A stretch of 64,000 nucleotides of DNA, from the NCBI GenBank assembly GCA_025024175.1, contig QCXZ01000047.1, positions 806,001 to 870,000 of the forward strand. The letters run 5' to 3'. The position numbers and the translations under genes were made by a program. The first letter of the stretch is position 1. Each line of letters starts with the position of its first letter. Source of the stretch: Rhyzopertha dominica (lineage: Eukaryota; Arthropoda; Insecta; Coleoptera; Bostrichidae). Positions 17,105 through 37,626 of this stretch are shown piece after piece. Under the pieces are notes generated by a model, which was not told the DNA's origin, did not search any database, and worked only from the letters and a program-made list of their open reading frames with translations.

Positions 17105-17512
17105 CAGCCACAGTTTCTTCCTGATTCCTGTTTTAAAAAGTCCTTGATTTCTTCATAGTATAAAAAGTAACCATTTTTTGAAGTTGCTTCCCAGTGTAAA
17201 CCATGTAGAGTTTCGGTTGTCCAATTTATATGTCTTTGGACTGTTGTAGCAAAAAGAAGTTTTGAGTAATTTTACCAAATGATGTGCCCAATAATGGCGA
17301 TTTATATGCATAAGAGCAATCTCTTTGCAGAGAAAAGGGTCCTCTTTGTATTGGAAACCCTGTACGTCGATAATTATCTGCCTGTAGATCACAACTGGGC
17401 TTAATTCTAATTGTACTTTGTGTCGTTTTAATAAATTTACCCAATAATCTAATCCGCTTATCAAAATCGTAGTTTTAACCAATCTACATACCTTTTCAAA
17501 TTTATCTAACAC
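17105..17512 (-). pseudogene. 'DVQGF' family protein, degenerate (copy 1)
   Basis: The minus strand carries 'IIIDVQGFQYKEDPFLCKEI', a hallmark N-terminal motif of a family common in insect Polinton-like DNA. In another frame downstream it carries the family's second block, 'TLHGLHWEA' and 'GYFLYYEEIKDFL' (normally '.YHGI.W.DG.VP'). The frame is broken near 17240-17330. The DxQ...KE pattern resembles an RNase H-like or exonuclease fold, but that assignment is inference. Identical copies lie at 33139-33546 (plus) and 34612-35019 (minus), and a better-preserved relative at 39,600-39,995. Confidence 0.5.
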
Positions 17513-17918
17513 TTACGTAAAAATCTAAATATTTATCTTGTGATGTCATGGTGTTGGTGGTGGTGTTAGCTTCTTCCTGAAGAACCAAAACTTCTAGAAG
17601 AACGTTCTGTGTTTATTATGGTCGATATTATTTTGTTAATAATATGGAAATATATGTAATATATTTATAATTTGACCTCTTCTGTTTCCACAACTTCTGG
17701 GTATAATAGCTGTTCGCAAATTATTTGAGCAATTTTATCCCTTTTTATATATATCGTTTATGACTGTTCGGAAAAATTGAACAACTTTTATTTCACCATT
17801 ATAGCTTTCGTCTATTATTCCAATTGAAATAATTGTTAACAGCTATATAACAAAATGTATTTAGTCAATAAAATGTTCTGAAGCTAATGCAGGACGTGCT
17901 GCAATTCGACCGTATATA

Positions 17919-19478
17919 CACTGCTCAAAAATTGAAGTGGATATTTGTATTGGTATTGCAATATTTCGTCATTGTAATGAATGTTATGCTTAATAAATGA
18001 ATTTTTATTCTTGTCACTAATAAACATACAGAAAATGAAAAAATTAAACAATAATAACTAAACAATGTCAAATAATAACTAAAAAATTTCAAAGTCTAAA
18101 AATTTGTAAATGTTGGGTTTCTTATGAATTTCTGTTCTTCTATAAATACACTATTAAAATAGGATACTGCCTACTTTAGTATCGTGTGGGGCCTCCCCTC
18201 GCTCTTCTTAGTGCCCTTACTCTATTTGGCATGGTAACAATTAAATTATTAATGAACTGCTGAGGGATGTTTTGCCAAATGTCTTCTAAAACAATTGCAA
18301 GCTGTTGTAACGTTTGGGGTGGCTGTTGAAGTTGGTTAAACCGTCTTGACATTTCGGACCAAACATGTTCGATACAATTCATATCTGGAGAACAAGCTGG
18401 CCCATCCATTCGCTCAATACCATGATGTTCAATGCGGTCGTTAACAATTCTGGCACGGTGCGGTCGAGCATTATCGTCGATTAAAATAAAGTTATCGCCT
18501 ATAGCTGCAGCAAATGGTACAATAATTGGCTCTATAACCATGTCACGATACCTTGCAGCTGTCATAGTGGCATTAATTAAAACAACCAACTCTGTGCGCC
18601 CGTTAAAACAAATGCCTCCCCAAACGCACACTGATCCACCCCCGAAAAGAGTTGTGGGCGACATGAAACGTTCATTGTATCGCATTCCTTGCTCTCTCCA
18701 TACCAAAACCCGACCATCGGAATGATAGAGACGAAACCGCGACTCATCAGTGAACATACAGGATCCCCACCTTTGCAGATTCCAATTACGGTGTTCAATA
18801 GCCCAACGATTTCTTTCTCCGCGCTGCTGCCTGCTTAACCGTGGATGAGTTACACGTCTTCTTGCCCTCAGATTGCGAGCATGCAACCTATTCCCTACTG
18901 TTTGACCACAAATAACTCTACCTGTAGCTTGCCGGAATAAGCTATTAATTCGTGATGCTGTGAAAGTAGGGTTTCTACGTGCAGTAAGGAGCATCAGGCG
19001 ATCTTCAGCTGCAGTTGTAGCTCTTTCTCTACCACCCCCATGGGTATATGCGGCATTACCTAAAGTTCTGTGTCGATTCCACGCTCTACTGATCACACTT
19101 TGAGAAACATTTAATCTGTTAGCAACTTCTGCTTGGGTTAAACCTTCATTTAACCAACGCACTAATTGTTCAAGTTGAACGGCTTCCAAACGCATGTTAA
19201 TGCAGTAAACTCTACACCACGTATGGTATTTAGCAATAAAACATATCCCATTCTTAAAAATATTGATAGCAAAAAATTGAACAAAAACGAAAAAGTTCAT
19301 ATCAGACTTGTTTTTATCATTTTTTTCTAGAGTTCCACGCATTCCTGACGAAAAGTTGATAAATATAGGATTGAAATATCGAAGTCCACTATTAAAACCA
19401 ATTTGAAACCTTAAACGTGAATTTAAATGATATAAATTTCTTTTTTTCACAAATATCCACTTCAATTTTTGACCAGTG
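17919..19478 (-). mobile_element. Tc1-like transposon, copy 1
   Basis: The element is bounded by 'cactgctcaaaaattgaag' and its inverted counterpart ending 'caatttttgaccagtg', flanked by TA on both sides (17917-17918 and 19479-19480). TIRs are about 29 bp, differing at one base. It is inserted in a Polinton-like relic. The other copies (31173-32732 and 35426-36985) are products of the segmental rearrangement, since their flanks are copied with them. Confidence 0.92.
18176..19195 (-). CDS. Tc1-like transposase, DD34E, copy 1
   Basis: Cut-and-paste transposase that binds the TIRs and inserts at TA. The open frame extends upstream to 19465, but the first 90 residues read through the 5' leader and TIR. 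The internal Met at 19195 gives a 339-residue protein, the usual size. The N-terminal half holds the paired helix-turn-helix ('GLTQAEVANRLNVSQSVISR') and an HTH_Tnp_Tc3-like second domain. The catalytic triad is intact: Asp in 'MFTDESRF', Asp in 'LIDDNARPHRA' and Glu in 'NCIEHVWS', with 34 residues between the last two. No stop or frameshift is present, so it may be functional. Confidence 0.93.
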   Translation of the reverse strand: MRLEAVQLEQLVRWLNEGLTQAEVANRLNVSQSVISRAWNRHRTLGNAAYTHGGGRERATTAAEDRLMLLTARRNPTFTASRINSLFRQATGRVICGQTVGNRLHARNLRARRRVTHPRLSRQQRGERNRWAIEHRNWNLQRWGSCMFTDESRFRLYHSDGRVLVWREQGMRYNERFMSPTTLFGGGSVCVWGGICFNGRTELVVLINATMTAARYRDMVIEPIIVPFAAAIGDNFILIDDNARPHRARIVNDRIEHHGIERMDGPACSPDMNCIEHVWSEMSRRFNQLQQPPQTLQQLAIVLEDIWQNIPQQFINNLIVTMPNRVRALRRARGGPTRY

Positions 19479-19719
19479 TATTTTCAGGCATAATGAACGT
19501 AAATCTACACGAGCAGACTTTTTGTATGCGCAGATCGTGGCGTAAGCTTCTGACAATACAATATGTTATGCGTTTGGTTATCAATTTGTACTACTCGGTA
19601 GTTGTTTACATTTACTTCGGCAGAGATAATTACTCATATGATTACATAAAATTATAAAACGGAAAAAACTAATTTTGTAATAAGTACATTTATTTATTAA
19701 AATCAAATGTTAGATACAT

Positions 19720-19835
19720 TTACAAGGAAGCGGCCGTTATTTTCCCTTCGGGAGAATTTTACACATAGATCATTGAACCTCCGTATCCAATGACCACCTT
19801 AACTGCCACGGAGTATAGACAAGCTAAATGGCTTC
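19720..19835 (+). pseudogene. 'DVQGF' family internal fragment (copy 1)
   Basis: The plus strand reads 'KEAAVIFPSGEFYT', stop, 'IIEPPYPMTTLTATEYRQ'. This matches the 'KEVAVVFPLGEFYPFIIKPP' region of the relative at 39,679-39,780. It is a short broken piece abutting the convergent gene at 19824-20060. Equivalent pieces lie at 30816-30931 (minus) and 37227-37342 (plus). Confidence 0.5.
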
Positions 19836-20060
19836 AATTTCATTCCTCACCTTACTCAGATAGACTTTGTTACGTACGATTTCGTTTATCTCTTCATCTC
19901 GAAGTATGTTATAGTTTTCTCTCAAGTACATTTGGTACATGTAATCAAGTTCTACCAAAATACATTCACTGTAGGTTACTTTGTGCCTTTTCCCTGCAGT
20001 TATTAGATGTTTTTTTTTGTGTGGTAACAAGTATTTAATGCTAAGCCAATTTTTAGACAT
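19824..20060 (-). CDS. 'KTWL' family small protein (copy 1)
   Basis: 78 residues, highly charged, with 'HLITAGKRHKVTYSE', 'LVELDYMYQMYL' and 'EINEIVRNKVYLSKVRNE'. Close relatives are at 38900-39136 and 45186-45527 (the longest, with an N-terminal extension), and a broken one at 40195-40425. Conservation of the frame across diverged copies indicates that it was a real gene of the Polinton-like element. Lys/Arg richness suggests nucleic-acid binding; no specific function is known. Copies by rearrangement are at 30591-30827 and 37331-37567. Confidence 0.55.
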   Translation of the reverse strand: MSKNWLSIKYLLPHKKKHLITAGKRHKVTYSECILVELDYMYQMYLRENYNILRDEEINEIVRNKVYLSKVRNEIEAI

Positions 20061-20119
20061 ATTTCCAATATTTAAACGTTTTACACGTTTTATTAGGTAT
20101 ATGCAAAATTAATACAATA

Positions 20120-20420
20120 CGTTTAATAAAGAGCTTGCGAGTAGAAGCCCATGCTGGATACATCGGGATCAAAATAGTCTACGTCCTGCTGTTCCTCTTG
20201 TTCGTAATGTGTATCATGAGGGACTCCAACAGTTTCGGCGATGCCTAATTACAGTTTGTAACTTTTACCGTATTTTCCTCTATTGGTAAGCTAGGTTTGC
20301 CACCTACAAGTTCAGTTAGTTGTTTCTCGGTGAAACCGTTATATCCTTGAGGGAGATTAATTTTAAAGCATCCATCCAGTTCAGCTACGTAATTTTTTGT
20401 TTGAAAAACGTTCTGAGTAT
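20120..20420 (-). pseudogene. 'TKFG' family protein, truncated (copy 1)
   Basis: The minus strand has 'YVAELDGCFKINLPQGYNGF' and 'EKQLTELVGGKPSLPIEEN', then, after a stop, an acidic tail ending 'DVSSMGFYSQALY'. The intact relative is the 132-residue protein at 46380-46778; here the N-terminus is missing and the middle is broken. Equivalent pieces: 30231-30531 (plus) and 37627-37927 (minus). Confidence 0.6.
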
Positions 20421-20567
20421 CTTAATTAGTCCCTAATATACGAATACGAGGAAAGGTTAAAGAAAACAAAATAACACCACGTATTCATTATATTGTTTTC
20501 TTTATTTGATATTCTAATGTCCTCAAGCATAGTTGGATATAAGATCTTCTCAAATGAAACTCTTATC

Positions 20568-20718
20568 ATGGTTTACCGTAAATAGAAAATTTACATGGTA
20601 ACCGGTTTCAAGGTCAAATTTATGTATATAACCGACCGCTCGTCGTCGCAGTCGTCAGTGATAAGCCAGAGGCTTATGGGCAAGCACCAAGTGGAGCTAA
20701 AAACACGGATATAAATAG
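20568..20718. repeat. Densovirus inverted terminal repeat, NS end, left copy
   Basis: About 150 bp shared by all four viral termini. It starts 'atggtttaccgtaaatag', whose first 36 bp form an imperfect hairpin, continues through 'ccgaccgctcgtcgtcgcag' and the small perfect stem 'ataagcc/ggcttat', and ends with the TATA box. The junction to host DNA is 'cttatcat|ggttt', with 'at' shared by both sides. Parvoviruses use such hairpins as replication origins. Confidence 0.9.
20710..20717 (+). promoter_or_regulatory. TATA box of the NS promoter, left copy
   Basis: 'tataaata' at the inner edge of the ITR, 67 nt upstream of the splice donor at 20778 and 74 nt upstream of the NS3 start codon. The same box is found in mirror at the VP end, so both viral promoters begin inside the ITR. 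Confidence 0.75.
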
Positions 20719-20777
20719 GAACAGCATGTAAGTACCCTTTAGTTATTCGTATATTGTTATTGTGTTAACTTGTATTG

Positions 20778-20783
20778 GTAAGT
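20778..20783 (+). promoter_or_regulatory. Splice donor upstream of NS3, left copy
   Basis: 'g|gtaagt' lies directly before the NS3 ATG (20784). With the acceptor ending at 21550 it would remove a 773-nt intron containing all of NS3. A second 'gtaagt' at 20728 could serve as an alternative donor. The same arrangement is known in ambisense densoviruses, where unspliced RNA makes NS3 and spliced RNA makes NS1 and NS2. Confidence 0.75.
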
Positions 20784-21515
20784 ATGCTTAGACATAAGAA
20801 ACTGGTTCAGCCGAAATCATTGAGGGACCTGGCCAAACGACGTATTCAAGAAGTGTACAAAAATAACTGGGACGAGACTACGGTGCTACCCACCGCATTG
20901 CAACATGAATTGCTACTAGCATGGTTACGTTGCGAGGAAGCTATTCCTGAAAGTGAGGAGGAAATAGAGGATATAGTTAAAAATATGGAGGATGGTTGGG
21001 AGTCCATGAAACCGATTACACCAACAAAGTTTTTGTATTTAATGCGCTTGCCTGAAGACGTCCCACCTTTTGCGTATGACAGGAACCACGTCATCTGGAG
21101 TTATTACGAATGGTATCAAGGTTCTCATATGAAGAAGTTGTGCTTCGCGTGCATGACTGTGAAGAGTAAATTTTACAAGTCGTATTCTGCAAATTTGTGG
21201 CTGGACAACAATTGGCAATTTATACTAATTGAAGACCACAGTGTATATGATGGAGACGAATTACTGGATAAGTTGATTTGGAACGAAGAGAATTGGTGCA
21301 GCAATTGTATAACGGAACCACTCTGGCAGCATATTCTTGATGATGAGGATTGTTTGTTGGAGTACAATTACCACTTGCGAAAGAAACGACCATGGGATGA
21401 TAGCAGCTCAGATGAAGAGCCGGACATTGAATGTCGTCGTACAACTCATGTTATTGGTAATCGAATGTGTCCATCGATGTATGCTGTATATAAGAAAAAT
21501 AAATGGTTCGATTAA
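20784..21515 (+). CDS. NS3: Densovirus non-structural protein NS3, left copy
   Basis: 243 residues. I take the ATG at 20784 rather than an in-frame upstream TTG, because the bases between are the splice donor. The C-terminal half carries two CxxC pairs ('LCFACMT' and 'WCSNCITE') of the kind conserved in densovirus NS3, consistent with a metal-binding site. An acidic stretch ('DDSSSDEE') follows. NS3 of ambisense densoviruses is required for viral DNA replication, though its biochemistry is poorly understood. The ORF is intact and identical to that at 29136-29867, and its 3' end lies 35 nt before the NS1 start. Confidence 0.85.
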   Translation: MLRHKKLVQPKSLRDLAKRRIQEVYKNNWDETTVLPTALQHELLLAWLRCEEAIPESEEEIEDIVKNMEDGWESMKPITPTKFLYLMRLPEDVPPFAYDRNHVIWSYYEWYQGSHMKKLCFACMTVKSKFYKSYSANLWLDNNWQFILIEDHSVYDGDELLDKLIWNEENWCSNCITEPLWQHILDDEDCLLEYNYHLRKKRPWDDSSSDEEPDIECRRTTHVIGNRMCPSMYAVYKKNKWFD

Positions 21516-21540
21516 ACGGTGTTATTATTGGTGTTCAAAT

Positions 21541-21550
21541 TCTTTTGCAG
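21541..21550 (+). promoter_or_regulatory. Splice acceptor flush with the NS1 start codon, left copy
   Basis: 'tcttttgcag' is a good pyrimidine-rich acceptor and is followed immediately by the NS1 ATG. Spliced transcripts therefore put NS1 first and NS2 seven bases further on, which suits leaky scanning. Confidence 0.75.
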
Positions 21551-23176
21551 ATGAGCTATGACGGTGACATTTGGCGTTATCTGGACATCCCTATGGGAGA
21601 TGTTGCCGGACGAATGGGCGAATCATCCAGGAGTTTGGTGGAAGATTATGGAGACAATCCCTCTGGATCAGGCGTGCAAGAGGCAGATGTTACAGATAAT
21701 TCAGCGATGGAGCAAAAATTACAAGCAATGGTCGACCGGTTCGTTACCATCCTTGAAGAAAAAGATTGGAAAGATGGCGGATACTATATCTCAGATGTGT
21801 TTGCCTGCGAGTCACTTGGACGAGCTGAGGGCTTGGCTAAACGAATGGCTGAGCGAGCAGCAAATTACCGACGGGGACTTATCCTTATATCTATCCACAG
21901 CACTGACGACGGTTCTGCCCACGTCCACTCCGTCCACAGCTGCCCTTACGCAAACAGGTCGTGCCGCTGTTACTTCAAAGCGTTCCCAGAAGCGCAAGAG
22001 GACGTTAGACGACTTCTTCGAAAGCCTCCACCCATCGAAACGTTCAAGCGACGAGATTGGGAAAATATCACAAAGTATTTTTGTACGAAAGGGAGACGAG
22101 CAACGTTCGCTAAAGTCAACGGTGCCCTACAAAGACTTCCTATTGAAATTACAAATTTATCCGACTCTATCATACCAAGCGAAACTGAAGGAAGACCATA
22201 CTCAGGCTTGGAGAACTGCCACGACCCGCTTGACAATTACGATGAACGAACACGAGGAATTGAATCGAAAGGTGATGGAAGTACTCGAAGTCGCAAAAGA
22301 AGAGGTGTTGGCAACGCAGGAGGAGATGGAGGGATCCGAGGAGACACAGGAGTAATTTTAGATTTAATAAAGAGGTATGCTATTTGTCCACTCTCAGAGA
22401 TAGTATATACTCGCGATTATTTGTTGCATAGAATTGCTGTTAAACGTTTAGATGATCGAGATGTTAAAAGCGCTATTGATTGTCATGCTGCGATTATTAA
22501 CACTTGGACTCGTGAAGATTATGTGAATTTTTATAATGATCCTAACACTATCAAAATTTGGTCTGCACGTAGTATTGACTTATTTGATCTATATTACCTA
22601 TCTGACGATGAATCAGTGGAGATAGTCAATAAATTGTTGGATTATCAATGTGGACTTGCTAAGAAACAGTTTGTTACAGATTTGCTTAACGTTACCGATA
22701 TGGTTATACCTAAATGTAACTGCTTTTTAGTTGTGTCTCCGCCGTCAGCTGGAAAGAATTTCTTTTTTGATGCTGTAAAAGATTACTATCTTAATGTTGG
22801 ACAAATGCAGAACCCCAATAAATATAATACCTTTGCATATCAGGATTGTCACAATAGACGTCTGTTAATTTGGAACGAACCAAATTATGAACCCCGCGAA
22901 ACTGAAAATCTTAAAATGTTGTTTGCGGGAGATAACTTTAGTGCTAATGTAAAATGTAAACCACAAGCAAATGTAAAACGCACACCTATTATTTGTATGT
23001 CTAATATTATGCCCCGCTTTGCTAATGATGAAGCTTTTGTTGATAGAATTATTACATATTACTGGAATTCTGCACCTTTTCTTAAGGATGTGTTAAAGAA
23101 ACCAAGACCAGATTCTGTTATGAATTTATTGTACTCAATATACTATACCGATTACATAAGTGCTTTATTTACGTAG
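21551..23176 (+). CDS. NS1: Densovirus replication initiator NS1, left copy
   Basis: 541 residues from the ATG just after the splice acceptor (the frame is open a further 16 codons upstream). NS1 nicks the viral origin, covalently binds the 5' end and unwinds DNA in the nucleus. Visible parts: an HUH nuclease metal motif 'HVH' near residues 124-126, a nicking Tyr in 'KYFCTKGRR' near 175, and a superfamily-3 helicase with Walker A 'PPSAGKN' near 397-403, Walker B 'RRLLIWNE' near 436-443 and motif C 'PIICMSN' near 479-485. No stop or frameshift interrupts it. It overlaps NS2 throughout its N-terminal half, and its 3' end overlaps the convergent capsid ORF by 8 nt. Same sequence as the right copy. 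Confidence 0.93.
   Translation: MSYDGDIWRYLDIPMGDVAGRMGESSRSLVEDYGDNPSGSGVQEADVTDNSAMEQKLQAMVDRFVTILEEKDWKDGGYYISDVFACESLGRAEGLAKRMAERAANYRRGLILISIHSTDDGSAHVHSVHSCPYANRSCRCYFKAFPEAQEDVRRLLRKPPPIETFKRRDWENITKYFCTKGRRATFAKVNGALQRLPIEITNLSDSIIPSETEGRPYSGLENCHDPLDNYDERTRGIESKGDGSTRSRKRRGVGNAGGDGGIRGDTGVILDLIKRYAICPLSEIVYTRDYLLHRIAVKRLDDRDVKSAIDCHAAIINTWTREDYVNFYNDPNTIKIWSARSIDLFDLYYLSDDESVEIVNKLLDYQCGLAKKQFVTDLLNVTDMVIPKCNCFLVVSPPSAGKNFFFDAVKDYYLNVGQMQNPNKYNTFAYQDCHNRRLLIWNEPNYEPRETENLKMLFAGDNFSANVKCKPQANVKRTPIICMSNIMPRFANDEAFVDRIITYYWNSAPFLKDVLKKPRPDSVMNLLYSIYYTDYISALFT
21558..22355 (+). CDS. NS2: Densovirus non-structural protein NS2, left copy (overlaps NS1)
   Basis: 265 residues in a frame different from NS1, starting 7 nt after the NS1 ATG. 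Such an overlapping NS2 is standard in ambisense densoviruses and is translated by leaky scanning from the spliced NS mRNA. The protein is hydrophilic, Glu/Lys/Gln-rich, with a basic patch ('KRSQKRKR') and no known domain. That a frame of this length stays open inside NS1 supports its being real. Same sequence as the right copy. Confidence 0.8.
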   Translation: MTVTFGVIWTSLWEMLPDEWANHPGVWWKIMETIPLDQACKRQMLQIIQRWSKNYKQWSTGSLPSLKKKIGKMADTISQMCLPASHLDELRAWLNEWLSEQQITDGDLSLYLSTALTTVLPTSTPSTAALTQTGRAAVTSKRSQKRKRTLDDFFESLHPSKRSSDEIGKISQSIFVRKGDEQRSLKSTVPYKDFLLKLQIYPTLSYQAKLKEDHTQAWRTATTRLTITMNEHEELNRKVMEVLEVAKEEVLATQEEMEGSEETQE

Positions 23177-24531
23177 AATTAACAGCCATCCTACCATACA
23201 CATTGGGATAGTCATAAGTTTTGGCCATAGGACGACCTTGCTCATCAGATGCCGTATACCATTGTAATTGTTGAGTAGTGTTGCTTGAAAAGCAGCCCTG
23301 TTTAATGTAGGTGTACGGATCTACTGACTCGGTGACAAGAGTACAATCTATTTCAAAGTACCCCTGGGCGTCTAACCAGGAATTTGCTTGTGTAGTATTG
23401 TCAGAAGTAGTTAATTTCGGTACAGCTCGAATGCCTACGTTTAATGAAGGCATTTGACTGTCACCGAAGAATTGGTCATTGATTTCCTCAAAGACTCCAC
23501 CTTGTTCCATTGGTCGCTTGTAATACATTTGATCTTCTTCAAAGTAGGTGCTCTTTTTATTTGGTCCTTGCTGAAATTTTCGCTCTATGTTCCACGTTTG
23601 ATGGGGCGCTGCTGACTGCGCTAGGGTGACGTTTTTATTGCCCCCTACCTCGGTACTGGTTCCCGTCGGTATATTTTGTCCTATAGTTGTTGTAATTTTA
23701 TTATTCGGAACTGCTGCGAAATTCTCGACAAGTGGAGCATATTGGAAATCATATGTCATATTAGCAACTACTCCGTTAACACAAGCACTGGCATCAAATT
23801 CTTCAATAAAATCTTTGTACGGAGGAAATCCTGGTAAATATGTAGTATCGTCCCCGGTACCACTAGCATCTAAAGTGTATATAGTAAGATAATCTTGTAA
23901 ATATATCTCTGCTCCAGTCGCATTTGCTGGAGGAGCTTGTGTGAAACTTGAGGAATTATTGTCGTAACCGTATATAGCAGTTTTAAGCCCTTCTCGATAT
24001 TGTTCTGATGTTTGCTGTTTGAATCCAGTAGGTAACATAGGTTCAGTTGCGGAATATTGATACCGTCTATTACTTGACGCAATAAAGGGAATAGAACGAA
24101 TGCCTTTGGCAACTTGTAAAAATTTATTTTGATTTAATGTGGCATTGGTTGTTTGAGTATCGCCTGTTTGAAAAGCAACACGAGTATTCCATGCTTTTAC
24201 AGTTACCGTTGCTGAGACAGCAAAGGTACCTGGATATTGCTTCATTCGATTAAATTCTGCTGGTGACATATACATAAATAGATACTCCCAAGGAATACTT
24301 GCCAAGCCAGTTGTTAGAGCAAATCGTTTGGGGGTGGTGCCCCATAGTGCCTCTTTCAATATGATATTGGCGTTAGCTGAAGTTAAGAAACGATGTTTCT
24401 TGTGGTAAGTCTTCACCAATTGCAATGTATCCACCCCTATATCTCACTTGCGTACTTGTGCTAGGCCTACGAAATACGCTTTCTTCACTGCTACTTGGAG
24501 TTATCGTTCCCAACTCGATGTACTCTGACAT
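23169..24531 (-). pseudogene. VP: Densovirus capsid gene with 1,270-bp internal deletion, left copy
   Basis: The minus strand starts as in the intact copy (ATG at 24531) and keeps about 38 codons. It then jumps at about 24417/24418 into the middle of the second capsid ORF. The lost segment corresponds to about 24,965-26,234 of the right copy and includes the phospholipase A2 region, the ORF1/ORF2 junction and the Gly/Ser-rich N-terminus of ORF2. The junction is out of frame, so the N-terminal frame ends shortly after. The remaining 3' part (the jelly-roll capsid region) is open to the normal stop. The deleted segment does not begin GT and end AG, so it is not a retro-copied intron. Confidence 0.9.
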
Positions 24532-24557
24532 ACTGGCTACATTTGTTTTTTACATAG

Positions 24558-24823
24558 CTATTTATATCCGTGTTTTTAGCTCCACTTGGTGCTTGCCCAT
24601 AAGCCTCTGGCTTATCACTGACGACTGCGACGACGAGCGGTCGGTTATATACATAAATTTGACCTTGAAACCATGGTTTACCGTAAATAGAAAATTTACA
24701 TGGTAACCGGTTTCAAGGTCAAATTTATGTATATAACCGACCGCTCGTCGTCGCAGTCGTCAGTGATAAGCCAGAGGCTTATGGGCAAGCACCAAGTGGA
24801 GCTAAAAACACGGATATAAATAG
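24558..24823. repeat. Head-to-head fused VP-end ITRs with a single shared hairpin
   Basis: Left-copy ITR (24558-24708) and right-copy ITR (24673-24823) share a central 36-bp hairpin segment at 24673-24708. On both sides it is bordered by 'gaccttgaaacc' and its complement 'ggtttcaaggtc'. This is the structure expected at the bridge of a parvoviral dimer replicative form, where two genomes share one terminal hairpin. A TATA box for the left VP gene is at 24559-24566 (minus). Confidence 0.92.
24815..24822 (+). promoter_or_regulatory. TATA box of the VP promoter, right copy
   Basis: 'tataaata' at the inner edge of the ITR, 28 nt before the first VP start codon at 24850. Confidence 0.75.
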
Positions 24824-24849
24824 CTATGTAAAAAACAAATGTAGCCAGT

Positions 24850-25737
24850 ATGTCAGAGTACATCGAGTTGGGAACGATAACTCCAAGTAGCAGTGAAGAA
24901 AGCGTATTTCGTAGGCCTAGCACAAGTACGCAAGTGAGATATAGGGGTGGATACATTGCAATTCCCATTAATTCAAGTAATTCTAGTCTATCTAGTGCGG
25001 GAAGTGGAAGTAAAACAAGAGTAGCACCAATACCAACAGTTGGAGCAGCAGTAGTAGGGGCAGGTGCACAATATCAACACATCTACGAAGAGCAGTTAGG
25101 TGCTGCAGCTGGAGATGCAAACAATCCCCTAAATCGAGCTATCGTTGGAAATAGAGACGATTACTACGCAGCGGTACCTTGGGAATTACGACGATTGGGA
25201 TTGCATGACAGACAGCGTCTTATTAAACCTTACGGAGTTCCGTGGAATACAGTCACACAGAGTGTATATCCAGAACACTGGAGCCTAGTCAATCAACAAG
25301 AAGGAGCAAGCAGAGTGCAGAAACAACAACAGACGAACGTACAAGTGGGAAAGGATTCGATCAATCAAGAAAGGAAACAACATCAGTCGCAAGGACTAAC
25401 ATTACCCTTTTCAAACAATATTGGACCTGGAAATCCAATACGTCCCGCGACAAACACAGCTGACCTTATTGCACAGGGTCACGACTTACATTATCAAGAA
25501 GCTAAGAACGATTCTGACGTGTTGTCAGCGGATAGAGAGGCAATCTCACAATTCACACACGAGGCAGTCCAAGGTCAGGATCCTGTATCTAGACTACACG
25601 CGGCAGTGGGAGGAGTCGGGTTGGGAATTAAGCACGCAGTCGAACGTTTAAGTGGGAAAGTACTGTACGGTAAGCAATGCCTAGAGATAGACCACTGGGT
25701 CCGAATCCCCAGGATCGCCCAAATTGGGCAACCATGA
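24850..25737 (+). CDS. VP: Densovirus capsid ORF1 (VP1-unique region with phospholipase A2), right copy
   Basis: 295 codons. The centre holds a parvoviral phospholipase A2 module: calcium loop 'GPGN' at residues 192-195 and the catalytic 'HDLHY' at 211-215, followed by the second helix with Asp. In parvoviruses this VP1-specific enzyme acts during particle trafficking out of endosomes. The ORF overlaps the second capsid ORF (25677-27482) in another frame and has a splice donor 'gtaagc' at 25670, so VP1 is most likely made by splicing ORF1 to ORF2 as in other split-VP densoviruses. Only the right copy retains it. Confidence 0.87.
   Translation: MSEYIELGTITPSSSEESVFRRPSTSTQVRYRGGYIAIPINSSNSSLSSAGSGSKTRVAPIPTVGAAVVGAGAQYQHIYEEQLGAAAGDANNPLNRAIVGNRDDYYAAVPWELRRLGLHDRQRLIKPYGVPWNTVTQSVYPEHWSLVNQQEGASRVQKQQQTNVQVGKDSINQERKQHQSQGLTLPFSNNIGPGNPIRPATNTADLIAQGHDLHYQEAKNDSDVLSADREAISQFTHEAVQGQDPVSRLHAAVGGVGLGIKHAVERLSGKVLYGKQCLEIDHWVRIPRIAQIGQP
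25670..25675 (+). promoter_or_regulatory. Candidate splice donor joining the two capsid ORFs
   Basis: 'g|gtaagc' near the end of ORF1. The acceptor is uncertain: the AG ending at 25845 has a fair pyrimidine stretch and keeps the frame, while the nearer one at 25712 does not. Confidence 0.5.
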
Positions 25738-27482
25738 ACGAGGGCCAACGCAGGTATGCCATGGAACAATGGCGCTTGGCTCGAGTAAGACGTGGCGAAA
25801 GGTTTGATCCTCCTGGGGATGACGATCACGGTGTAACTTTCCAAGAAGCAATTGATGATTTTAATTTGGATCTTCTAGGGTCACCCCAGGAGGGAAACCA
25901 GGCCACGCAGAATTCAGACGACGGTGTAGAAGACTTCTTGCAACAAATAAAAGACAGACAAGGACAAGCAGACACAGGTAGAAACGCGAACCAACAACCA
26001 GACATGTCAGACGTGAACATGTCGCAAGTATCAAGTAGTCAATCAGCAAGTGGGGGAAGTAAAGGAAATAAACGATCTGGAAGTTCATCCGGAGGAAAAG
26101 CTGCAAAAGTACCAAAGTCTGGAACGTCTTTACCAGGGACAGGTGGCAATTTGGATGGCATGACGAGTGGCGGTAATGCAGGAAATGGATCGCCTGCTAT
26201 ATTGCGTCCTATCGGTTTACATGTGGAGAAAATGGTGAAGACTTACCACAAGAAACATCGTTTCTTAACTTCAGCTAACGCCAATATCATATTGAAAGAG
26301 GCACTATGGGGCACCACCCCCAAACGATTTGCTCTAACAACTGGCTTGGCAAGTATTCCTTGGGAGTATCTATTTATGTATATGTCACCAGCAGAATTTA
26401 ATCGAATGAAGCAATATCCAGGTACCTTTGCTGTCTCAGCAACGGTAACTGTAAAAGCATGGAATACTCGTGTTGCTTTTCAAACAGGCGATACTCAAAC
26501 AACCAATGCCACATTAAATCAAAATAAATTTTTACAAGTTGCCAAAGGCATTCGTTCTATTCCCTTTATTGCGTCAAGTAATAGACGGTATCAATATTCC
26601 GCAACTGAACCTATGTTACCTACTGGATTCAAACAGCAAACATCAGAACAATATCGAGAAGGGCTTAAAACTGCTATATACGGTTACGACAATAATTCCT
26701 CAAGTTTCACACAAGCTCCTCCAGCAAATGCGACTGGAGCAGAGATATATTTACAAGATTATCTTACTATATACACTTTAGATGCTAGTGGTACCGGGGA
26801 CGATACTACATATTTACCAGGATTTCCTCCGTACAAAGATTTTATTGAAGAATTTGATGCCAGTGCTTGTGTTAACGGAGTAGTTGCTAATATGACATAT
26901 GATTTCCAATATGCTCCACTTGTCGAGAATTTCGCAGCAGTTCCGAATAATAAAATTACAACAACTATAGGACAAAATATACCGACGGGAACCAGTACCG
27001 AGGTAGGGGGCAATAAAAACGTCACCCTAGCGCAGTCAGCAGCGCCCCATCAAACGTGGAACATAGAGCGAAAATTTCAGCAAGGACCAAATAAAAAGAG
27101 CACCTACTTTGAAGAAGATCAAATGTATTACAAGCGACCAATGGAACAAGGTGGAGTCTTTGAGGAAATCAATGACCAATTCTTCGGTGACAGTCAAATG
27201 CCTTCATTAAACGTAGGCATTCGAGCTGTACCGAAATTAACTACTTCTGACAATACTACACAAGCAAATTCCTGGTTAGACGCCCAGGGGTACTTTGAAA
27301 TAGATTGTACTCTTGTCACCGAGTCAGTAGATCCGTACACCTACATTAAACAGGGCTGCTTTTCAAGCAACACTACTCAACAATTACAATGGTATACGGC
27401 ATCTGATGAGCAAGGTCGTCCTATGGCCAAAACTTATGACTATCCCAATGTGTATGGTAGGATGGCTGTTAATTCTACGTAA
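25677..27482 (+). CDS. VP: Densovirus major capsid ORF2, right copy
   Basis: Up to 601 codons. The N-terminal 200 residues are hydrophilic, with an acidic section and a long Gly/Ser-rich stretch typical of the region just before the parvoviral shell domain. From about residue 210 the densovirus capsid domain begins (Denso_VP4-like, jelly-roll), with 'ASIPWEYLFMYMSP' as a recognisable early motif. The true start depends on splicing and on internal initiation; several in-frame ATGs (25677, 25734, 26003, 26159) could give the smaller capsid proteins. The stop is followed at once by a polyadenylation signal. The ORF is intact. Confidence 0.9.
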   Translation: MPRDRPLGPNPQDRPNWATMNEGQRRYAMEQWRLARVRRGERFDPPGDDDHGVTFQEAIDDFNLDLLGSPQEGNQATQNSDDGVEDFLQQIKDRQGQADTGRNANQQPDMSDVNMSQVSSSQSASGGSKGNKRSGSSSGGKAAKVPKSGTSLPGTGGNLDGMTSGGNAGNGSPAILRPIGLHVEKMVKTYHKKHRFLTSANANIILKEALWGTTPKRFALTTGLASIPWEYLFMYMSPAEFNRMKQYPGTFAVSATVTVKAWNTRVAFQTGDTQTTNATLNQNKFLQVAKGIRSIPFIASSNRRYQYSATEPMLPTGFKQQTSEQYREGLKTAIYGYDNNSSSFTQAPPANATGAEIYLQDYLTIYTLDASGTGDDTTYLPGFPPYKDFIEEFDASACVNGVVANMTYDFQYAPLVENFAAVPNNKITTTIGQNIPTGTSTEVGGNKNVTLAQSAAPHQTWNIERKFQQGPNKKSTYFEEDQMYYKRPMEQGGVFEEINDQFFGDSQMPSLNVGIRAVPKLTTSDNTTQANSWLDAQGYFEIDCTLVTESVDPYTYIKQGCFSSNTTQQLQWYTASDEQGRPMAKTYDYPNVYGRMAVNST

Positions 27483-29100
27483 ATAAAGCACTTATGTAAT
27501 CGGTATAGTATATTGAGTACAATAAATTCATAACAGAATCTGGTCTTGGTTTCTTTAACACATCCTTAAGAAAAGGTGCAGAATTCCAGTAATATGTAAT
27601 AATTCTATCAACAAAAGCTTCATCATTAGCAAAGCGGGGCATAATATTAGACATACAAATAATAGGTGTGCGTTTTACATTTGCTTGTGGTTTACATTTT
27701 ACATTAGCACTAAAGTTATCTCCCGCAAACAACATTTTAAGATTTTCAGTTTCGCGGGGTTCATAATTTGGTTCGTTCCAAATTAACAGACGTCTATTGT
27801 GACAATCCTGATATGCAAAGGTATTATATTTATTGGGGTTCTGCATTTGTCCAACATTAAGATAGTAATCTTTTACAGCATCAAAAAAGAAATTCTTTCC
27901 AGCTGACGGCGGAGACACAACTAAAAAGCAGTTACATTTAGGTATAACCATATCGGTAACGTTAAGCAAATCTGTAACAAACTGTTTCTTAGCAAGTCCA
28001 CATTGATAATCCAACAATTTATTGACTATCTCCACTGATTCATCGTCAGATAGGTAATATAGATCAAATAAGTCAATACTACGTGCAGACCAAATTTTGA
28101 TAGTGTTAGGATCATTATAAAAATTCACATAATCTTCACGAGTCCAAGTGTTAATAATCGCAGCATGACAATCAATAGCGCTTTTAACATCTCGATCATC
28201 TAAACGTTTAACAGCAATTCTATGCAACAAATAATCGCGAGTATATACTATCTCTGAGAGTGGACAAATAGCATACCTCTTTATTAAATCTAAAATTACT
28301 CCTGTGTCTCCTCGGATCCCTCCATCTCCTCCTGCGTTGCCAACACCTCTTCTTTTGCGACTTCGAGTACTTCCATCACCTTTCGATTCAATTCCTCGTG
28401 TTCGTTCATCGTAATTGTCAAGCGGGTCGTGGCAGTTCTCCAAGCCTGAGTATGGTCTTCCTTCAGTTTCGCTTGGTATGATAGAGTCGGATAAATTTGT
28501 AATTTCAATAGGAAGTCTTTGTAGGGCACCGTTGACTTTAGCGAACGTTGCTCGTCTCCCTTTCGTACAAAAATACTTTGTGATATTTTCCCAATCTCGT
28601 CGCTTGAACGTTTCGATGGGTGGAGGCTTTCGAAGAAGTCGTCTAACGTCCTCTTGCGCTTCTGGGAACGCTTTGAAGTAACAGCGGCACGACCTGTTTG
28701 CGTAAGGGCAGCTGTGGACGGAGTGGACGTGGGCAGAACCGTCGTCAGTGCTGTGGATAGATATAAGGATAAGTCCCCGTCGGTAATTTGCTGCTCGCTC
28801 AGCCATTCGTTTAGCCAAGCCCTCAGCTCGTCCAAGTGACTCGCAGGCAAACACATCTGAGATATAGTATCCGCCATCTTTCCAATCTTTTTCTTCAAGG
28901 ATGGTAACGAACCGGTCGACCATTGCTTGTAATTTTTGCTCCATCGCTGAATTATCTGTAACATCTGCCTCTTGCACGCCTGATCCAGAGGGATTGTCTC
29001 CATAATCTTCCACCAAACTCCTGGATGATTCGCCCATTCGTCCGGCAACATCTCCCATAGGGATGTCCAGATAACGCCAAATGTCACCGTCATAGCTCAT
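27475..29100 (-). CDS. NS1: Densovirus replication initiator NS1, right copy
   Basis: Mirror of the left NS1, with the same HUH, nicking Tyr and superfamily-3 helicase motifs and no interruption. Its 3' end overlaps the end of the capsid ORF by 8 nt (tail-to-tail), which fixes the ambisense layout: VP rightward, NS leftward, promoters at opposite ends in the ITRs. The splice acceptor ending flush with the ATG is at 29101-29110. Confidence 0.93.
   Translation of the reverse strand: MSYDGDIWRYLDIPMGDVAGRMGESSRSLVEDYGDNPSGSGVQEADVTDNSAMEQKLQAMVDRFVTILEEKDWKDGGYYISDVFACESLGRAEGLAKRMAERAANYRRGLILISIHSTDDGSAHVHSVHSCPYANRSCRCYFKAFPEAQEDVRRLLRKPPPIETFKRRDWENITKYFCTKGRRATFAKVNGALQRLPIEITNLSDSIIPSETEGRPYSGLENCHDPLDNYDERTRGIESKGDGSTRSRKRRGVGNAGGDGGIRGDTGVILDLIKRYAICPLSEIVYTRDYLLHRIAVKRLDDRDVKSAIDCHAAIINTWTREDYVNFYNDPNTIKIWSARSIDLFDLYYLSDDESVEIVNKLLDYQCGLAKKQFVTDLLNVTDMVIPKCNCFLVVSPPSAGKNFFFDAVKDYYLNVGQMQNPNKYNTFAYQDCHNRRLLIWNEPNYEPRETENLKMLFAGDNFSANVKCKPQANVKRTPIICMSNIMPRFANDEAFVDRIITYYWNSAPFLKDVLKKPRPDSVMNLLYSIYYTDYISALFT
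27482..27487 (+). terminator. Polyadenylation signal of the VP transcript
   Basis: 'aataaa' overlaps the last base of the VP stop codon. Its mirror lies at 23164-23169 on the minus strand for the left copy. Confidence 0.7.
28296..29093 (-). CDS. NS2: Densovirus non-structural protein NS2, right copy (overlaps NS1)
   Basis: 265 residues in an alternative frame of NS1, starting 7 nt downstream of the NS1 ATG. Same sequence as the left copy, with the same hydrophilic character and basic patch. Expressed, by analogy with ambisense densoviruses, through leaky scanning on the spliced NS transcript. Confidence 0.8.
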   Translation of the reverse strand: MTVTFGVIWTSLWEMLPDEWANHPGVWWKIMETIPLDQACKRQMLQIIQRWSKNYKQWSTGSLPSLKKKIGKMADTISQMCLPASHLDELRAWLNEWLSEQQITDGDLSLYLSTALTTVLPTSTPSTAALTQTGRAAVTSKRSQKRKRTLDDFFESLHPSKRSSDEIGKISQSIFVRKGDEQRSLKSTVPYKDFLLKLQIYPTLSYQAKLKEDHTQAWRTATTRLTITMNEHEELNRKVMEVLEVAKEEVLATQEEMEGSEETQE

Positions 29101-29135
29101 CTGCAAAAGAATTTGAACACCAATAATAACACCGT

Positions 29136-29867
29136 TTAATCGAACCATTTATTTTTCTTATATACAGCATACATCGATGGACACATTCGATTACCAATAA
29201 CATGAGTTGTACGACGACATTCAATGTCCGGCTCTTCATCTGAGCTGCTATCATCCCATGGTCGTTTCTTTCGCAAGTGGTAATTGTACTCCAACAAACA
29301 ATCCTCATCATCAAGAATATGCTGCCAGAGTGGTTCCGTTATACAATTGCTGCACCAATTCTCTTCGTTCCAAATCAACTTATCCAGTAATTCGTCTCCA
29401 TCATATACACTGTGGTCTTCAATTAGTATAAATTGCCAATTGTTGTCCAGCCACAAATTTGCAGAATACGACTTGTAAAATTTACTCTTCACAGTCATGC
29501 ACGCGAAGCACAACTTCTTCATATGAGAACCTTGATACCATTCGTAATAACTCCAGATGACGTGGTTCCTGTCATACGCAAAAGGTGGGACGTCTTCAGG
29601 CAAGCGCATTAAATACAAAAACTTTGTTGGTGTAATCGGTTTCATGGACTCCCAACCATCCTCCATATTTTTAACTATATCCTCTATTTCCTCCTCACTT
29701 TCAGGAATAGCTTCCTCGCAACGTAACCATGCTAGTAGCAATTCATGTTGCAATGCGGTGGGTAGCACCGTAGTCTCGTCCCAGTTATTTTTGTACACTT
29801 CTTGAATACGTCGTTTGGCCAGGTCCCTCAATGATTTCGGCTGAACCAGTTTCTTATGTCTAAGCAT
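29136..29867 (-). CDS. NS3: Densovirus non-structural protein NS3, right copy
   Basis: Intact mirror of the left NS3 with both CxxC pairs. The splice donor 'gtaagt' (29868-29873) immediately precedes the ATG. NS3 is the promoter-proximal gene and is removed from the NS1/NS2 mRNA by splicing. Confidence 0.85.
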   Translation of the reverse strand: MLRHKKLVQPKSLRDLAKRRIQEVYKNNWDETTVLPTALQHELLLAWLRCEEAIPESEEEIEDIVKNMEDGWESMKPITPTKFLYLMRLPEDVPPFAYDRNHVIWSYYEWYQGSHMKKLCFACMTVKSKFYKSYSANLWLDNNWQFILIEDHSVYDGDELLDKLIWNEENWCSNCITEPLWQHILDDEDCLLEYNYHLRKKRPWDDSSSDEEPDIECRRTTHVIGNRMCPSMYAVYKKNKWFD

Positions 29868-29932
29868 ACTTACCAATACAAGTTAACACAATAACAATAT
29901 ACGAATAACTAAAGGGTACTTACATGCTGTTC

Positions 29933-30083
29933 CTATTTATATCCGTGTTTTTAGCTCCACTTGGTGCTTGCCCATAAGCCTCTGGCTTATCACTGACGAC
30001 TGCGACGACGAGCGGTCGGTTATATACATAAATTTGACCTTGAAACCGGTTACCATGTAAATTTTCTATTTACGGTAAACCAT
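29933..30083. repeat. Densovirus inverted terminal repeat, NS end, right copy
   Basis: Mirror of 20568-20718, including the TATA box (29934-29941, minus) and the terminal imperfect hairpin. The host side reads 'ccatgataagagtttcattt', the exact reverse complement of the left host flank. Confidence 0.9.
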
Positions 30084-30230
30084 GATAAGAGTTTCATTTG
30101 AGAAGATCTTATATCCAACTATGCTTGAGGACATTAGAATATCAAATAAAGAAAACAATATAATGAATACGTGGTGTTATTTTGTTTTCTTTAACCTTTC
30201 CTCGTATTCGTATATTAGGGACTAATTAAG

Positions 30231-30531
30231 ATACTCAGAACGTTTTTCAAACAAAAAATTACGTAGCTGAACTGGATGGATGCTTTAAAATTAATCTCCC
30301 TCAAGGATATAACGGTTTCACCGAGAAACAACTAACTGAACTTGTAGGTGGCAAACCTAGCTTACCAATAGAGGAAAATACGGTAAAAGTTACAAACTGT
30401 AATTAGGCATCGCCGAAACTGTTGGAGTCCCTCATGATACACATTACGAACAAGAGGAACAGCAGGACGTAGACTATTTTGATCCCGATGTATCCAGCAT
30501 GGGCTTCTACTCGCAAGCTCTTTATTAAACG
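30231..30531 (+). pseudogene. 'TKFG' family protein, truncated (inverted copy)
   Basis: Mirror of 20120-20420, in the inverted arm of the palindrome, with the same broken frame. Confidence 0.6.
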
Positions 30532-30590
30532 TATTGTATTAATTTTGCATATACCTAATAAAACGTGTAAAACGTTTAAATATTGGAAAT

Positions 30591-30827
30591 ATGTCTAAAA
30601 ATTGGCTTAGCATTAAATACTTGTTACCACACAAAAAAAAACATCTAATAACTGCAGGGAAAAGGCACAAAGTAACCTACAGTGAATGTATTTTGGTAGA
30701 ACTTGATTACATGTACCAAATGTACTTGAGAGAAAACTATAACATACTTCGAGATGAAGAGATAAACGAAATCGTACGTAACAAAGTCTATCTGAGTAAG
30801 GTGAGGAATGAAATTGAAGCCATTTAG
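30591..30827 (+). CDS. 'KTWL' family small protein (inverted copy)
   Basis: Same 78 residues as 19824-20060, carried by the inverted duplication. Confidence 0.55.
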   Translation: MSKNWLSIKYLLPHKKKHLITAGKRHKVTYSECILVELDYMYQMYLRENYNILRDEEINEIVRNKVYLSKVRNEIEAI

Positions 30828-31172
30828 CTTGTCTATACTCCGTGGCAGTTAAGGTGGTCATTGGATACGGAGGTTCAATGATCTATGTGTAAAATTCTCC
30901 CGAAGGGAAAATAACGGCCGCTTCCTTGTAAATGTATCTAACATTTGATTTTAATAAATAAATGTACTTATTACAAAATTAGTTTTTTCCGTTTTATAAT
31001 TTTATGTAATCATATGAGTAATTATCTCTGCCGAAGTAAATGTAAACAACTACCGAGTAGTACAAATTGATAACCAAACGCATAACATATTGTATTGTCA
31101 GAAGCTTACGCCACGATCTGCGCATACAAAAAGTCTGCTCGTGTAGATTTACGTTCATTATGCCTGAAAATA

Positions 31173-32732
31173 CACTGGTCAAAAATTGAAGTGGATATTT
31201 GTGAAAAAAAGAAATTTATATCATTTAAATTCACGTTTAAGGTTTCAAATTGGTTTTAATAGTGGACTTCGATATTTCAATCCTATATTTATCAACTTTT
31301 CGTCAGGAATGCGTGGAACTCTAGAAAAAAATGATAAAAACAAGTCTGATATGAACTTTTTCGTTTTTGTTCAATTTTTTGCTATCAATATTTTTAAGAA
31401 TGGGATATGTTTTATTGCTAAATACCATACGTGGTGTAGAGTTTACTGCATTAACATGCGTTTGGAAGCCGTTCAACTTGAACAATTAGTGCGTTGGTTA
31501 AATGAAGGTTTAACCCAAGCAGAAGTTGCTAACAGATTAAATGTTTCTCAAAGTGTGATCAGTAGTGCGTGGAATCGACACAGAACTTTAGGTAATGCCG
31601 CATATACCCATGGGGGTGGTAGAGAAAGAGCTACAACTGCAGCTGAAGATCGCCTGATGCTCCTTACTGCACGTAGAAACCCTACTTTCACAGCATCACG
31701 AATTAATAGCTTATTCCGGCAAGCTACAGGTAGAGTTATTTGTGGTCAAACAGTAGGGAATAGGTTGCATGCTCGCAATCTGAGGGCAAGAAGACGTGTA
31801 ACTCATCCACGGTTAAGCAGGCAGCAGCGCGGAGAAAGAAATCGTTGGGCTATTGAACACCGTAATTGGAATCTGCAAAGGTGGGGATCCTGTATGTTCA
31901 CTGATGAGTCGCGGTTTCGTCTCTATCATTCCGATGGTCGGGTTTTGGTATGGAGAGAGCAAGGAATGCGATACAATGAACGTTTCATGTCGCCCACAAC
32001 TCTTTTCGGGGGTGGATCAGTGTGCGTTTGGGGAGGCATTTGTTTTAACGGGCGCACAGAGTTGGTTGTTTTAATTAATGCCACTATGACAGCTGCAAGG
32101 TATCGTGACATGGTTATAGAGCCAATTATTGTACCATTTGCTGCAGCTATAGGCGATAACTTTATTTTAATCGACGATAATGCTCGACCGCACCGTGCCA
32201 GAATTGTTAACGACCGCATTGAACATCATGGTATTGAGCGAATGGATGGGCCAGCTTGTTCTCCAGATATGAATTGTATCGAACATGTTTGGTCCGAAAT
32301 GTCAAGACGGTTTAACCAACTTCAACAGCCACCCCAAACGTTACAACAGCTTGCAATTGTTTTAGAAGACATTTGGCAAAACATCCCTCAGCAGTTCATT
32401 AATAATTTAATTGTTACCATGCCAAATAGAGTAAGGGCACTAAGAAGAGCGAGGGGAGGCCCCACACGATACTAAAGTAGGCAGTATCCTATTTTAATAG
32501 TGTATTTATAGAAGAACAGAAATTCATAAGAAACCCAACATTTACAAATTTTTAGACTTTGAAATTTTTTAGTTATTATTTGACATTGTTTAGTTATTAT
32601 TGTTTAATTTTTTCATTTTCTGTATGTTTATTAGTGACAAGAATAAAAATTCATTTATTAAGCATAACATTCATTACAATGACGAAATATTGCAATACCA
32701 ATACAAATATCCACTTCAATTTTTGAGCAGTG
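31173..32732 (+). mobile_element. Tc1-like transposon, inverted copy
   Basis: Mirror of 17919-19478 with the same TIRs and TA sites. It was copied with its flank rather than by transposition. Confidence 0.92.
31456..32475 (+). CDS. Tc1-like transposase, DD34E, inverted copy
   Basis: Same 339-residue protein as 18176-19195 apart from one substitution in the first helix-turn-helix, 'VISSAW' instead of 'VISRAW' (T instead of A at 31566). The catalytic DDE residues are unchanged. This single difference is useful for telling the copies apart in reads. Confidence 0.93.
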   Translation: MRLEAVQLEQLVRWLNEGLTQAEVANRLNVSQSVISSAWNRHRTLGNAAYTHGGGRERATTAAEDRLMLLTARRNPTFTASRINSLFRQATGRVICGQTVGNRLHARNLRARRRVTHPRLSRQQRGERNRWAIEHRNWNLQRWGSCMFTDESRFRLYHSDGRVLVWREQGMRYNERFMSPTTLFGGGSVCVWGGICFNGRTELVVLINATMTAARYRDMVIEPIIVPFAAAIGDNFILIDDNARPHRARIVNDRIEHHGIERMDGPACSPDMNCIEHVWSEMSRRFNQLQQPPQTLQQLAIVLEDIWQNIPQQFINNLIVTMPNRVRALRRARGGPTRY

Positions 32733-33138
32733 TATATACGGTCGAATTGCAGCACGTCCTGCATTAGCTTCAGAACATTTTATTGACTAAATACATTTTG
32801 TTATATAGCTGTTAACAATTATTTCAATTGGAATAATAGACGAAAGCTATAATGGTGAAATAAAAGTTGTTCAATTTTTCCGAACAGTCATAAACGATAT
32901 ATATAAAAAGGGATAAAATTGCTCAAATAATTTGCGAACAGCTATTATACCCAGAAGTTGTGGAAACAGAAGAGGTCAAATTATAAATATATTACATATA
33001 TTTCCATATTATTAACAAAATAATATCGACCATAATAAACACAGAACGTTCTTCTAGAAGTTTTGGTTCTTCAGGAAGAAGCTAACACCACCACCAACAC
33101 CATGACATCACAAGATAAATATTTAGATTTTTACGTAA

Positions 33139-33546: not shown

Positions 33547-33581
33547 GTTTCCGTTCACCTTCACCCAGTGCGAGATACACT

Positions 33582-37567: not shown

Positions 37568-37626
37568 ATTTCCAATATTTAAACGTTTTACACGTTTTAT
37601 TAGGTATATGCAAAATTAATACAATA

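What the first reader, a model, noticed from the sequence alone, without database searches (positions are those of the whole stretch)
20568..30083. Head-to-head densovirus dimer fused through its terminal hairpin inside an insect chromosome
Two genomes face each other VP end to VP end, sharing one 36-bp hairpin between two ITRs. That is the molecular form of a parvoviral dimer replicative intermediate, rarely seen preserved in a genome. The right copy keeps both ITRs and all ORFs open, so either the integration is very recent or it can still produce virus. Most endogenous parvoviral sequences are degraded fragments.
Basis: partly seen in the sequence, partly recalled or inferred. Interest (0 to 1): 0.93.

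Follow-up and report, generated by a model that had tools for sequence, protein, structure and literature searches.

The report
Mirrored densovirus insert with host DNA
In this probably insect genome a small DNA virus sits head to head with a shortened mirror copy of itself, and the mirror image runs on into the host DNA, which suggests that a broken chromosome folded back at the virus's hairpin end and was copied, unless the assembly is wrong.

Summary
Two ambisense densovirus copies do face each other across a 36-nt hairpin between perfect 255-bp arms. Host block A (16037-20569) recurs directly at 33544-38076 (0 of 4533 differences); its inner 3465 bp (b) recur inverted at 30082-33546 (1 difference). 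The order is U-A-[V-hairpin-V']-b inverted-A-B, an inverted triplication, with A|B intact on the right. The two outer virus-host junctions are thus one junction and its mirror image, which insertion of a dimer alone does not explain. The left viral copy lacks 1270 bp at its VP end.

Best reading: one viral molecule joined a break at A|B by its NS end; its VP-end hairpin was the fold-back turn; copying ran back through the virus and 3.5 kb into host, then switched template to A and restored the chromosome; one viral arm later lost 1270 bp. The chief rival is an assembly or library artefact; no reads were available. Virus, fold-back and inverted triplication are known kinds; I found no report of the combination in limited searches. 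New variant of a known kind.

The parts
15800..16036 (+). U (part examined): native left flank; U|A order is ancestral
   Evidence: Of 40 listed matches to 15800-16300 in the own genome, one is the window itself and one the right copy of A; 19 of the other 38 cross the 16036/16037 boundary with at least 20 bases on each side, one more by 12
16037..20569 (+). A, left copy of host block (4533 bp; a = 16037-17104, b = 17105-20569)
   Evidence: 0 of 4533 differences to 33544-38076
17916..19481 (-). Tc1-type transposon nested in b, transposase frame 18176-19465; present in all three copies of b, so older than the event
   Evidence: DDE_3 and HTH_Tnp_Tc3_2, 33-bp terminal inverted repeats, near-identical copies elsewhere
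20567..20569 (+). J1: host-virus junction, 3-nt overlap CAT
   Evidence: compare intact A|B at 38076 and virus centre at 24672
20570..24418 (+). left viral copy, NS end outward, up to the deletion junction
   Evidence: 0 of 3849 differences to 26233-30081
21503..23176 (+). NS1, left copy (557 aa)
   Evidence: Parvo_NS1; full-length relatives
23169..24434 (-). shortened VP frame, left copy (421 aa)
   Evidence: Denso_VP4; matches VP residues 178-601 of the right copy
24418..24419 (.). J4: junction of the 1270-bp deletion in the left copy, 1-nt overlap
24418..24963 (.). central viral terminus: 255-bp perfect arms around a 36-nt hairpin (24673-24708)
24709..30081 (.). right viral copy from the central hairpin to the mirrored host junction
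24850..25737 (+). N-terminal VP frame with weak phospholipase A2-like match (18.8 bits, cut-off 23.9)
25677..27482 (+). main VP frame, 601 aa
   Evidence: Denso_VP4; the nine best relatives are 580-598 aa
27475..29148 (-). NS1, right copy, identical to left
30082..30084 (-). J2: mirror image of J1
   Evidence: the same 40-base junction is found twice in 284 kb, both strands counted
30082..33546 (-). b inverted
   Evidence: 1 of 3465 differences, at 31566, private to this copy
33544..33546 (+). J3: switch from inverted b to direct A, 3-nt overlap CTG
   Evidence: found once in 284 kb
33544..38076 (+). A, right copy
38077..38242 (+). B (part examined): native right flank, uninterrupted from A = virus-free site
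   Evidence: 80 of 80 bases across the site identical to a neighbouring paralogue at 40983-41062; 95.8% over 37894-38242

Best explanation
A recent inverted triplication of host DNA with a densovirus at its fold-back point. Proposed course, inferred from anatomy: (1) a break at A|B was joined to the NS end of one viral DNA molecule at its terminal hairpin, with 3 nt of overlap; (2) the other viral end, a closed or self-priming hairpin, capped the broken chromosome, and copying round the hairpin made a second, inverted viral copy and continued 3465 nt back into host DNA; (3) the new end switched template, with 3 nt of overlap, to position 16037 of an intact A and copied A and B, restoring the chromosome without loss; (4) a 1270-bp deletion later removed part of one viral arm, as is reported for long palindromes. 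Shown: order, orientation, identity and junctions in the assembly. Inferred: the hairpin as primer, the order of steps, and that it happened in a living germ line.
For: Mirror symmetry runs through the virus-host junction for 3465 bp with 1 difference, so J1 and J2 look like one junction copied. The turning point is the viral terminal hairpin. A|B is intact on the right and in a neighbouring paralogue; U|A order is seen in 19 other matches. Copy number steps are a = 2, b = 3 with the middle copy inverted, the shape of inverted triplications (PMC4352052 abstract; PMC4689423 abstract and section 9). No other recent viral copy was found in the genome: NS1 gave 3 matches, two here and an old 40% fragment; VP gave 2, both here; the central 601 bp gave 6, all here. 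Section 9 of PMC4689423 describes deletion of one palindrome arm at such junctions.
Against: No reads: the structure rests on one contig. The overlaps of 3, 3 and 1 nt are each compatible with chance: simulated probability of 3 or more is 0.058 for host-virus and 0.065 for host-inverted host; the third simulated figure (0.019) was for 4 nt, but the printed sequences show 1 nt at J4. In the cited yeast cases the arm was lost between short repeats, which J4 lacks. The unequal arms need an extra step. The flanking contig also holds other near-identical direct duplications (C47:763.5-778.9 kb), so recent duplication or misassembly is not confined to the virus. The block lies inside the longest N-free gap of 284 kb, which may mean unusual polishing there.
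Confidence: 0.52

Rival explanations
1. Assembly or library artefact: a fold-back or chimeric read at the viral hairpin, joined by the assembler to a virus-free haplotype. The true locus would be a simpler, perhaps heterozygous, insertion.
For: Copies are almost identical. The contig is 1.09 Mb in a genome with contigs to at least 70 Mb, with scattered single N letters and its longest N-free gap, of the 284 kb examined, just here; other near-perfect direct copies lie 27-42 kb away. Viral terminal hairpins favour snap-back in vitro (recalled). The span 17105-33546 is 16.4 kb, of the order of one long read.
Against: A read folding back on one molecule gives equal arms; here one arm lacks 1270 bp. 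J3 shares only 3 nt, too little for an overlap-based join (inference), so some molecule should contain it. The inverted copy has a private base, A where the left and right copies and 5 of 5 examined transposon relatives have T, although that may be a consensus error.
Confidence: 0.25
2. A ready-made dimer replicative form, already lacking 1270 bp in one arm, joined the break. Its free arm then used homology with the viral copy on the sister or homologous chromosome to copy out into b, followed by the switch at J3.
For: Explains the unequal arms without a later deletion; head-to-head dimers with shared termini are normal parvoviral intermediates (recalled). Identical viral arms would supply long homology.
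Against: Needs a defective dimer, a join, an invasion and a switch; the hairpin model starts from one viral monomer. No independent sign of defective dimers was seen.
Confidence: 0.18
3. The viral initiator NS1 nicked host DNA and drove target duplication, as proposed for AAV Rep at AAVS1.
For: Direct host copies on both sides of the virus with the site preserved recall the gene duplications reported in AAV-latent cell lines (PMC2900306 passages). The NS1 frame is open. An ITR piece (20570-20720) scored 25 against 400 bp around the target; 4 of 300 random 400-bp host stretches scored as high (mean 18.7).
Against: That similarity is weak and a single comparison; no nick or binding motif was identified. 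JcDV experiments report random integration and see NS proteins as not driving it (PMC5978394 passages from the abstract). Inverted b is not explained.
Confidence: 0.05

Closest known systems
Endogenous densoviral elements in insects (e.g. ant genomes, PMC6540820, passages seen)
   Same: Densoviral NS and VP genes in host DNA
   Different: Here open main frames, mirrored copies, a terminal hairpin kept at the centre, and host DNA mirrored with it
[quoted passage not shown] only its title seen, in the reference list of PMC2900306; the paper is not held)
   Same: Parvovirus flanked by direct copies of the target, original site preserved (passage of PMC2900306 and recall)
   Different: Here an inverted host segment lies between; no target motif identified
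[quoted passage not shown]
   Same: Step-wise copy number with the middle copy inverted, short overlaps
   Different: No distal duplication; the turn is a viral hairpin, not a host inverted repeat; kilobase scale
ODIRA and hairpin-capped DNA in yeast (PMC4689423, abstract and section 9; PMC10766183, abstract)
   Same: Hairpin-capped duplex gives an inverted dimer and an interstitial inverted triplication; one arm may then be lost
   Different: No replication origin shown; the second turn spans 1068 bp with 3 nt shared; viral DNA inside
Fold-back inverted duplications in human chromosomes (PMC3907307, abstract)
   Same: Broken end folds back, is copied and leaves a spacer
   Different: There next to terminal deletions, translocations or rings; here the turn is viral and the chromosome continues intact
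JcDV vector integrations in Sf9 cells (PMC5978394, passages incl. abstract)
   Same: Densoviral DNA joined to insect DNA with rearrangement
   Different: Those were scrambled, with no full construct recovered

Membership tests
Densovirinae (Parvoviridae) | NS1 with SF3 helicase and HUH motifs | tested here: met
   Parvo_NS1 35.2 bits over cut-off 20; H140, H142 and G417-K418-N419 invariant in 21 aligned sequences (motif names recalled)
Densovirinae (Parvoviridae) | Densoviral capsid protein | tested here: met
   Denso_VP4 180.1 bits over cut-off 27; 123 relatives at E<=0.001 among the 7994 candidates scored
Densovirinae (Parvoviridae) | Terminal hairpins, genome near 5 kb | tested here: met
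   36-nt hairpin and 115-nt ITR arm at both viral ends, the outer end lacking its second arm; 24709-30081 = 5.4 kb; the three best NS1 relatives lie on contigs of up to 5158-5217 bases
Scindoambidensovirus | Ambisense genome with split VP frame (recalled definition) | tested here: met
   NS and VP converge; VP in frames of 295 and 601 aa; the nine best VP relatives are 580-598 aa
Scindoambidensovirus | NS1 groups with named members of the genus | not tested
   No named member was aligned and no tree built; the genus exists, Bee densovirus 6 is filed under unclassified Densovirinae
Inverted triplication (DUP-TRP/INV-DUP kind) | Three copies of a segment, middle inverted, next to a segment with two copies | tested here: met
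   b three copies, a two copies
Inverted triplication (DUP-TRP/INV-DUP kind) | Duplicated segment on both sides | tested here: not met
   B has no second near-identical copy in the window, only a diverged paralogue. Hence 'like', not a full member
ODIRA product | Replication origin inside the inverted segment; turns at short interrupted inverted repeats | tested here: inconclusive
   First turn has a 36-nt spacer; second has 3 nt over 1068 bp; origin not testable
AAV-type Rep-targeted integration | Initiator binding and nick sites in the target | tested here: inconclusive
   Only weak ITR similarity
Germ-line endogenous virus | Present in all cells and inherited | not testable with these tools
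   Single assembly, no reads, no second individual

The most novel reading that the evidence does not exclude
A parvoviral terminal hairpin acted as a makeshift cap on a broken chromosome and primed copying back into host DNA, so viral telomeres can themselves create inverted triplications of host sequence. The mirrored arms, over 7 kb each, could also be transcribed as a long hairpin RNA against the virus.
Probability: 0.38. Interest if true: 0.8.

Novelty: new variant of a known kind. Interest (0 to 1): 0.62.

Why it matters
If the structure is real, it shows at base level that a virus's own terminal hairpin can be the turning point of a host rearrangement, linking parvoviral end structure to the origin of inverted triplications. 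It preserves U|A, A|B and all junctions, so the order of events can be tested in populations. The 4.5-kb direct repeats around it also predict that the whole block can be lost by recombination, restoring an unmarked site, which might help explain why such fresh insertions are seldom seen (inference). If it is an artefact, it is a warning that viral hairpins can produce convincing false integrations.

Tried and rejected
Whole-window palindrome from a folded contig: rejected, since the mirror ends at 17105 and 33546. Two independent insertions at one site: rejected, as it would need the same host base and the same ITR truncation twice, with host inverted as well. Host block as transposon ends: considered because A contains repeats, but 19 other matches cross 16037 and the paralogue crosses 38076; rejected. 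I first read J4 as a 4-nt overlap (note, from the repeat tool's extension); it is 1 nt. Viral relatives in IMG/VR: two pattern scans, 1 and 33 stretches matched a pattern, none confirmed. Rfam at gathering threshold: nothing. Mitochondrial COX1 for host identity: one 58-residue fragment with a stop. Histone H1 did not name the species. J3 elsewhere in the genome: not completed, so checked only in 284 kb, where it occurs once. Not in print: the listings (titles and abstract starts; several capped, e.g. 20 of 215) showed no such case; the one hit concerns Cas9-edited cells (passages). Most subscription papers are not held.

Dating: 1 change in 20,739 site-branches gives about 17,000 generations (436 to 95,948) at a recalled insect rate of 2.8e-9; younger if that base is an error.

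Full report
Observation. The window is C47:806001-870000 of a 479-Mb, 138-contig genome; C47 is 1,085,027 bp. Two viral copies face each other by their VP ends around 24690. The centre holds a 36-nt imperfect hairpin between two perfect 255-bp arms; a 122-nt piece folds at -58.1 kcal/mol against a shuffled mean of -12.0. The ITR common to both viral ends comprises the hairpin and a 115-nt arm.

What was missed. Self-comparison shows that the mirror goes past the virus. Host 17105-20569 (b) is repeated inverted at 30082-33546, and host 16037-20569 (A) directly at 33544-38076. Exact counts of differences are 0 of 3849 (viral arms), 1 of 3465 (b and inverted b), 0 of 4533 (A copies) and 0 of 255 (central arms). 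The order is U-A-V-hairpin-V'-b inverted-A-B. The 40-base host-virus junction occurs twice, once in each orientation; J3 and J4 occur once each in the 284 kb examined.

Ancestral order. A|B is continuous at 38076/38077 and in a neighbouring paralogue (80 of 80 bases across the site; 95.8% over about 350 bp). Of 40 listed matches to the U|A stretch, two are the window's own copies; 19 of the other 38 cross the boundary with at least 20 bases on each side. So the right A-B looks like the virus-free site, and J1 and J3 are rearrangement points, not borders of a repeat. A Tc1-type transposon nested in b is in all three copies and predates the event.

Junctions. J1 shares CAT between host and virus, J3 shares CTG, J4 shares one base. 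The simulated chance of 3 or more is 0.058 for host-virus and 0.065 for host-inverted host, so the overlaps are only weak support for microhomology-driven repair. J4 removes 1270 bp of the VP end from the left copy.

The virus. NS1 carries Parvo_NS1 and the main VP frame Denso_VP4, both over their cut-offs; the phospholipase match of the N-terminal VP frame is below its cut-off; the two small NS frames have no Pfam match. The two best NS1 relatives are 88% identical over 99% (108 proteins found); the six best VP relatives are 81-82% identical with lengths of 580-595 aa, so the split VP looks natural rather than broken. Those relatives lie on unnamed contigs; named ones include Coleura bat parvovirus, Bee densovirus 6, a record labelled canine parvovirus and a protein filed under Araneus ventricosus. 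None was found in IMG/VR. The own genome shows no other recent copy, only an old 40% NS1 fragment with a stop on C53.

Age. The one difference lies in inverted b at 31566; left and right copies and 5 of 5 examined transposon relatives share the other base. One change in 20,739 site-branches is about 17,000 generations at a recalled insect rate, range about 400 to 96,000.

Mechanism. The symmetry point is the viral terminus, and the symmetry includes host DNA with the same breakpoint. The simplest account is that a single virus joined to a broken chromosome end was copied around its hairpin, back through the virus and into b, before a template switch to A. Hairpin-capped DNA makes inverted triplications in yeast (PMC4689423, abstract and section 9; PMC10766183, abstract), and fold-back inverted duplications are known in human chromosomes (PMC3907307, abstract). 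PMC10766183 favours a replication error over a double-strand break as the start of such events, so the break in step 1 is my assumption. Section 9 of PMC4689423 also describes loss of one palindrome arm, matching J4 in kind; there short repeats were involved, here one base is shared.

Artefact. No reads were available. In 220 kb of flanking contig there was no inverted pair of this quality (the longest at 97% or more identity was 1.8 kb, 97.5%), but there was a cluster of 99.9-100% direct copies at C47:763.5-778.9 kb. The 26.7-kb gap without N letters that contains the block is the longest of 284 kb, next 18.9 kb. Unequal arms and the 3-nt J3 speak against a single fold-back read; they do not exclude chimeras from amplified DNA. 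I give artefact 0.25.

Host. A linker histone frame of the same genome has unnamed best hits; the first named are beetles (Diorhabda, Tenebrio), 61-78% identical over 33-55% of the query for the Diorhabda, Tenebrio and Leptinotarsa rows looked at; other insects, spiders and one plant-labelled record follow (best 120 of 2341 listed). Species is not identified.

Verdict.

Noticed in passing
C47:763491-778917 (about 27-42 kb before the window; L036-L038): Cluster of direct repeats of 0.7-2.1 kb at 99.9-100% identity, possibly another recent complex duplication or an assembly fault on the same contig.
   Followed up: no
L017 (C53:9362591-9363037): Old NS1-like fragment, 40% identical, one stop: an older endogenous densoviral element.
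   Followed up: no
window 15937-42632: Longest stretch without single N letters in 284 kb of the contig, enclosing the rearranged block; could reflect hemizygosity or polishing.
   Followed up: partly
window 37894-46683: Diverged tandem paralogues of parts of A and B (about 77-96%) follow the block.
   Followed up: partly
window 58859-60259: Open transposase frame, 466 aa, DDE_Tnp_1_7 (piggyBac type by recall).
   Followed up: no
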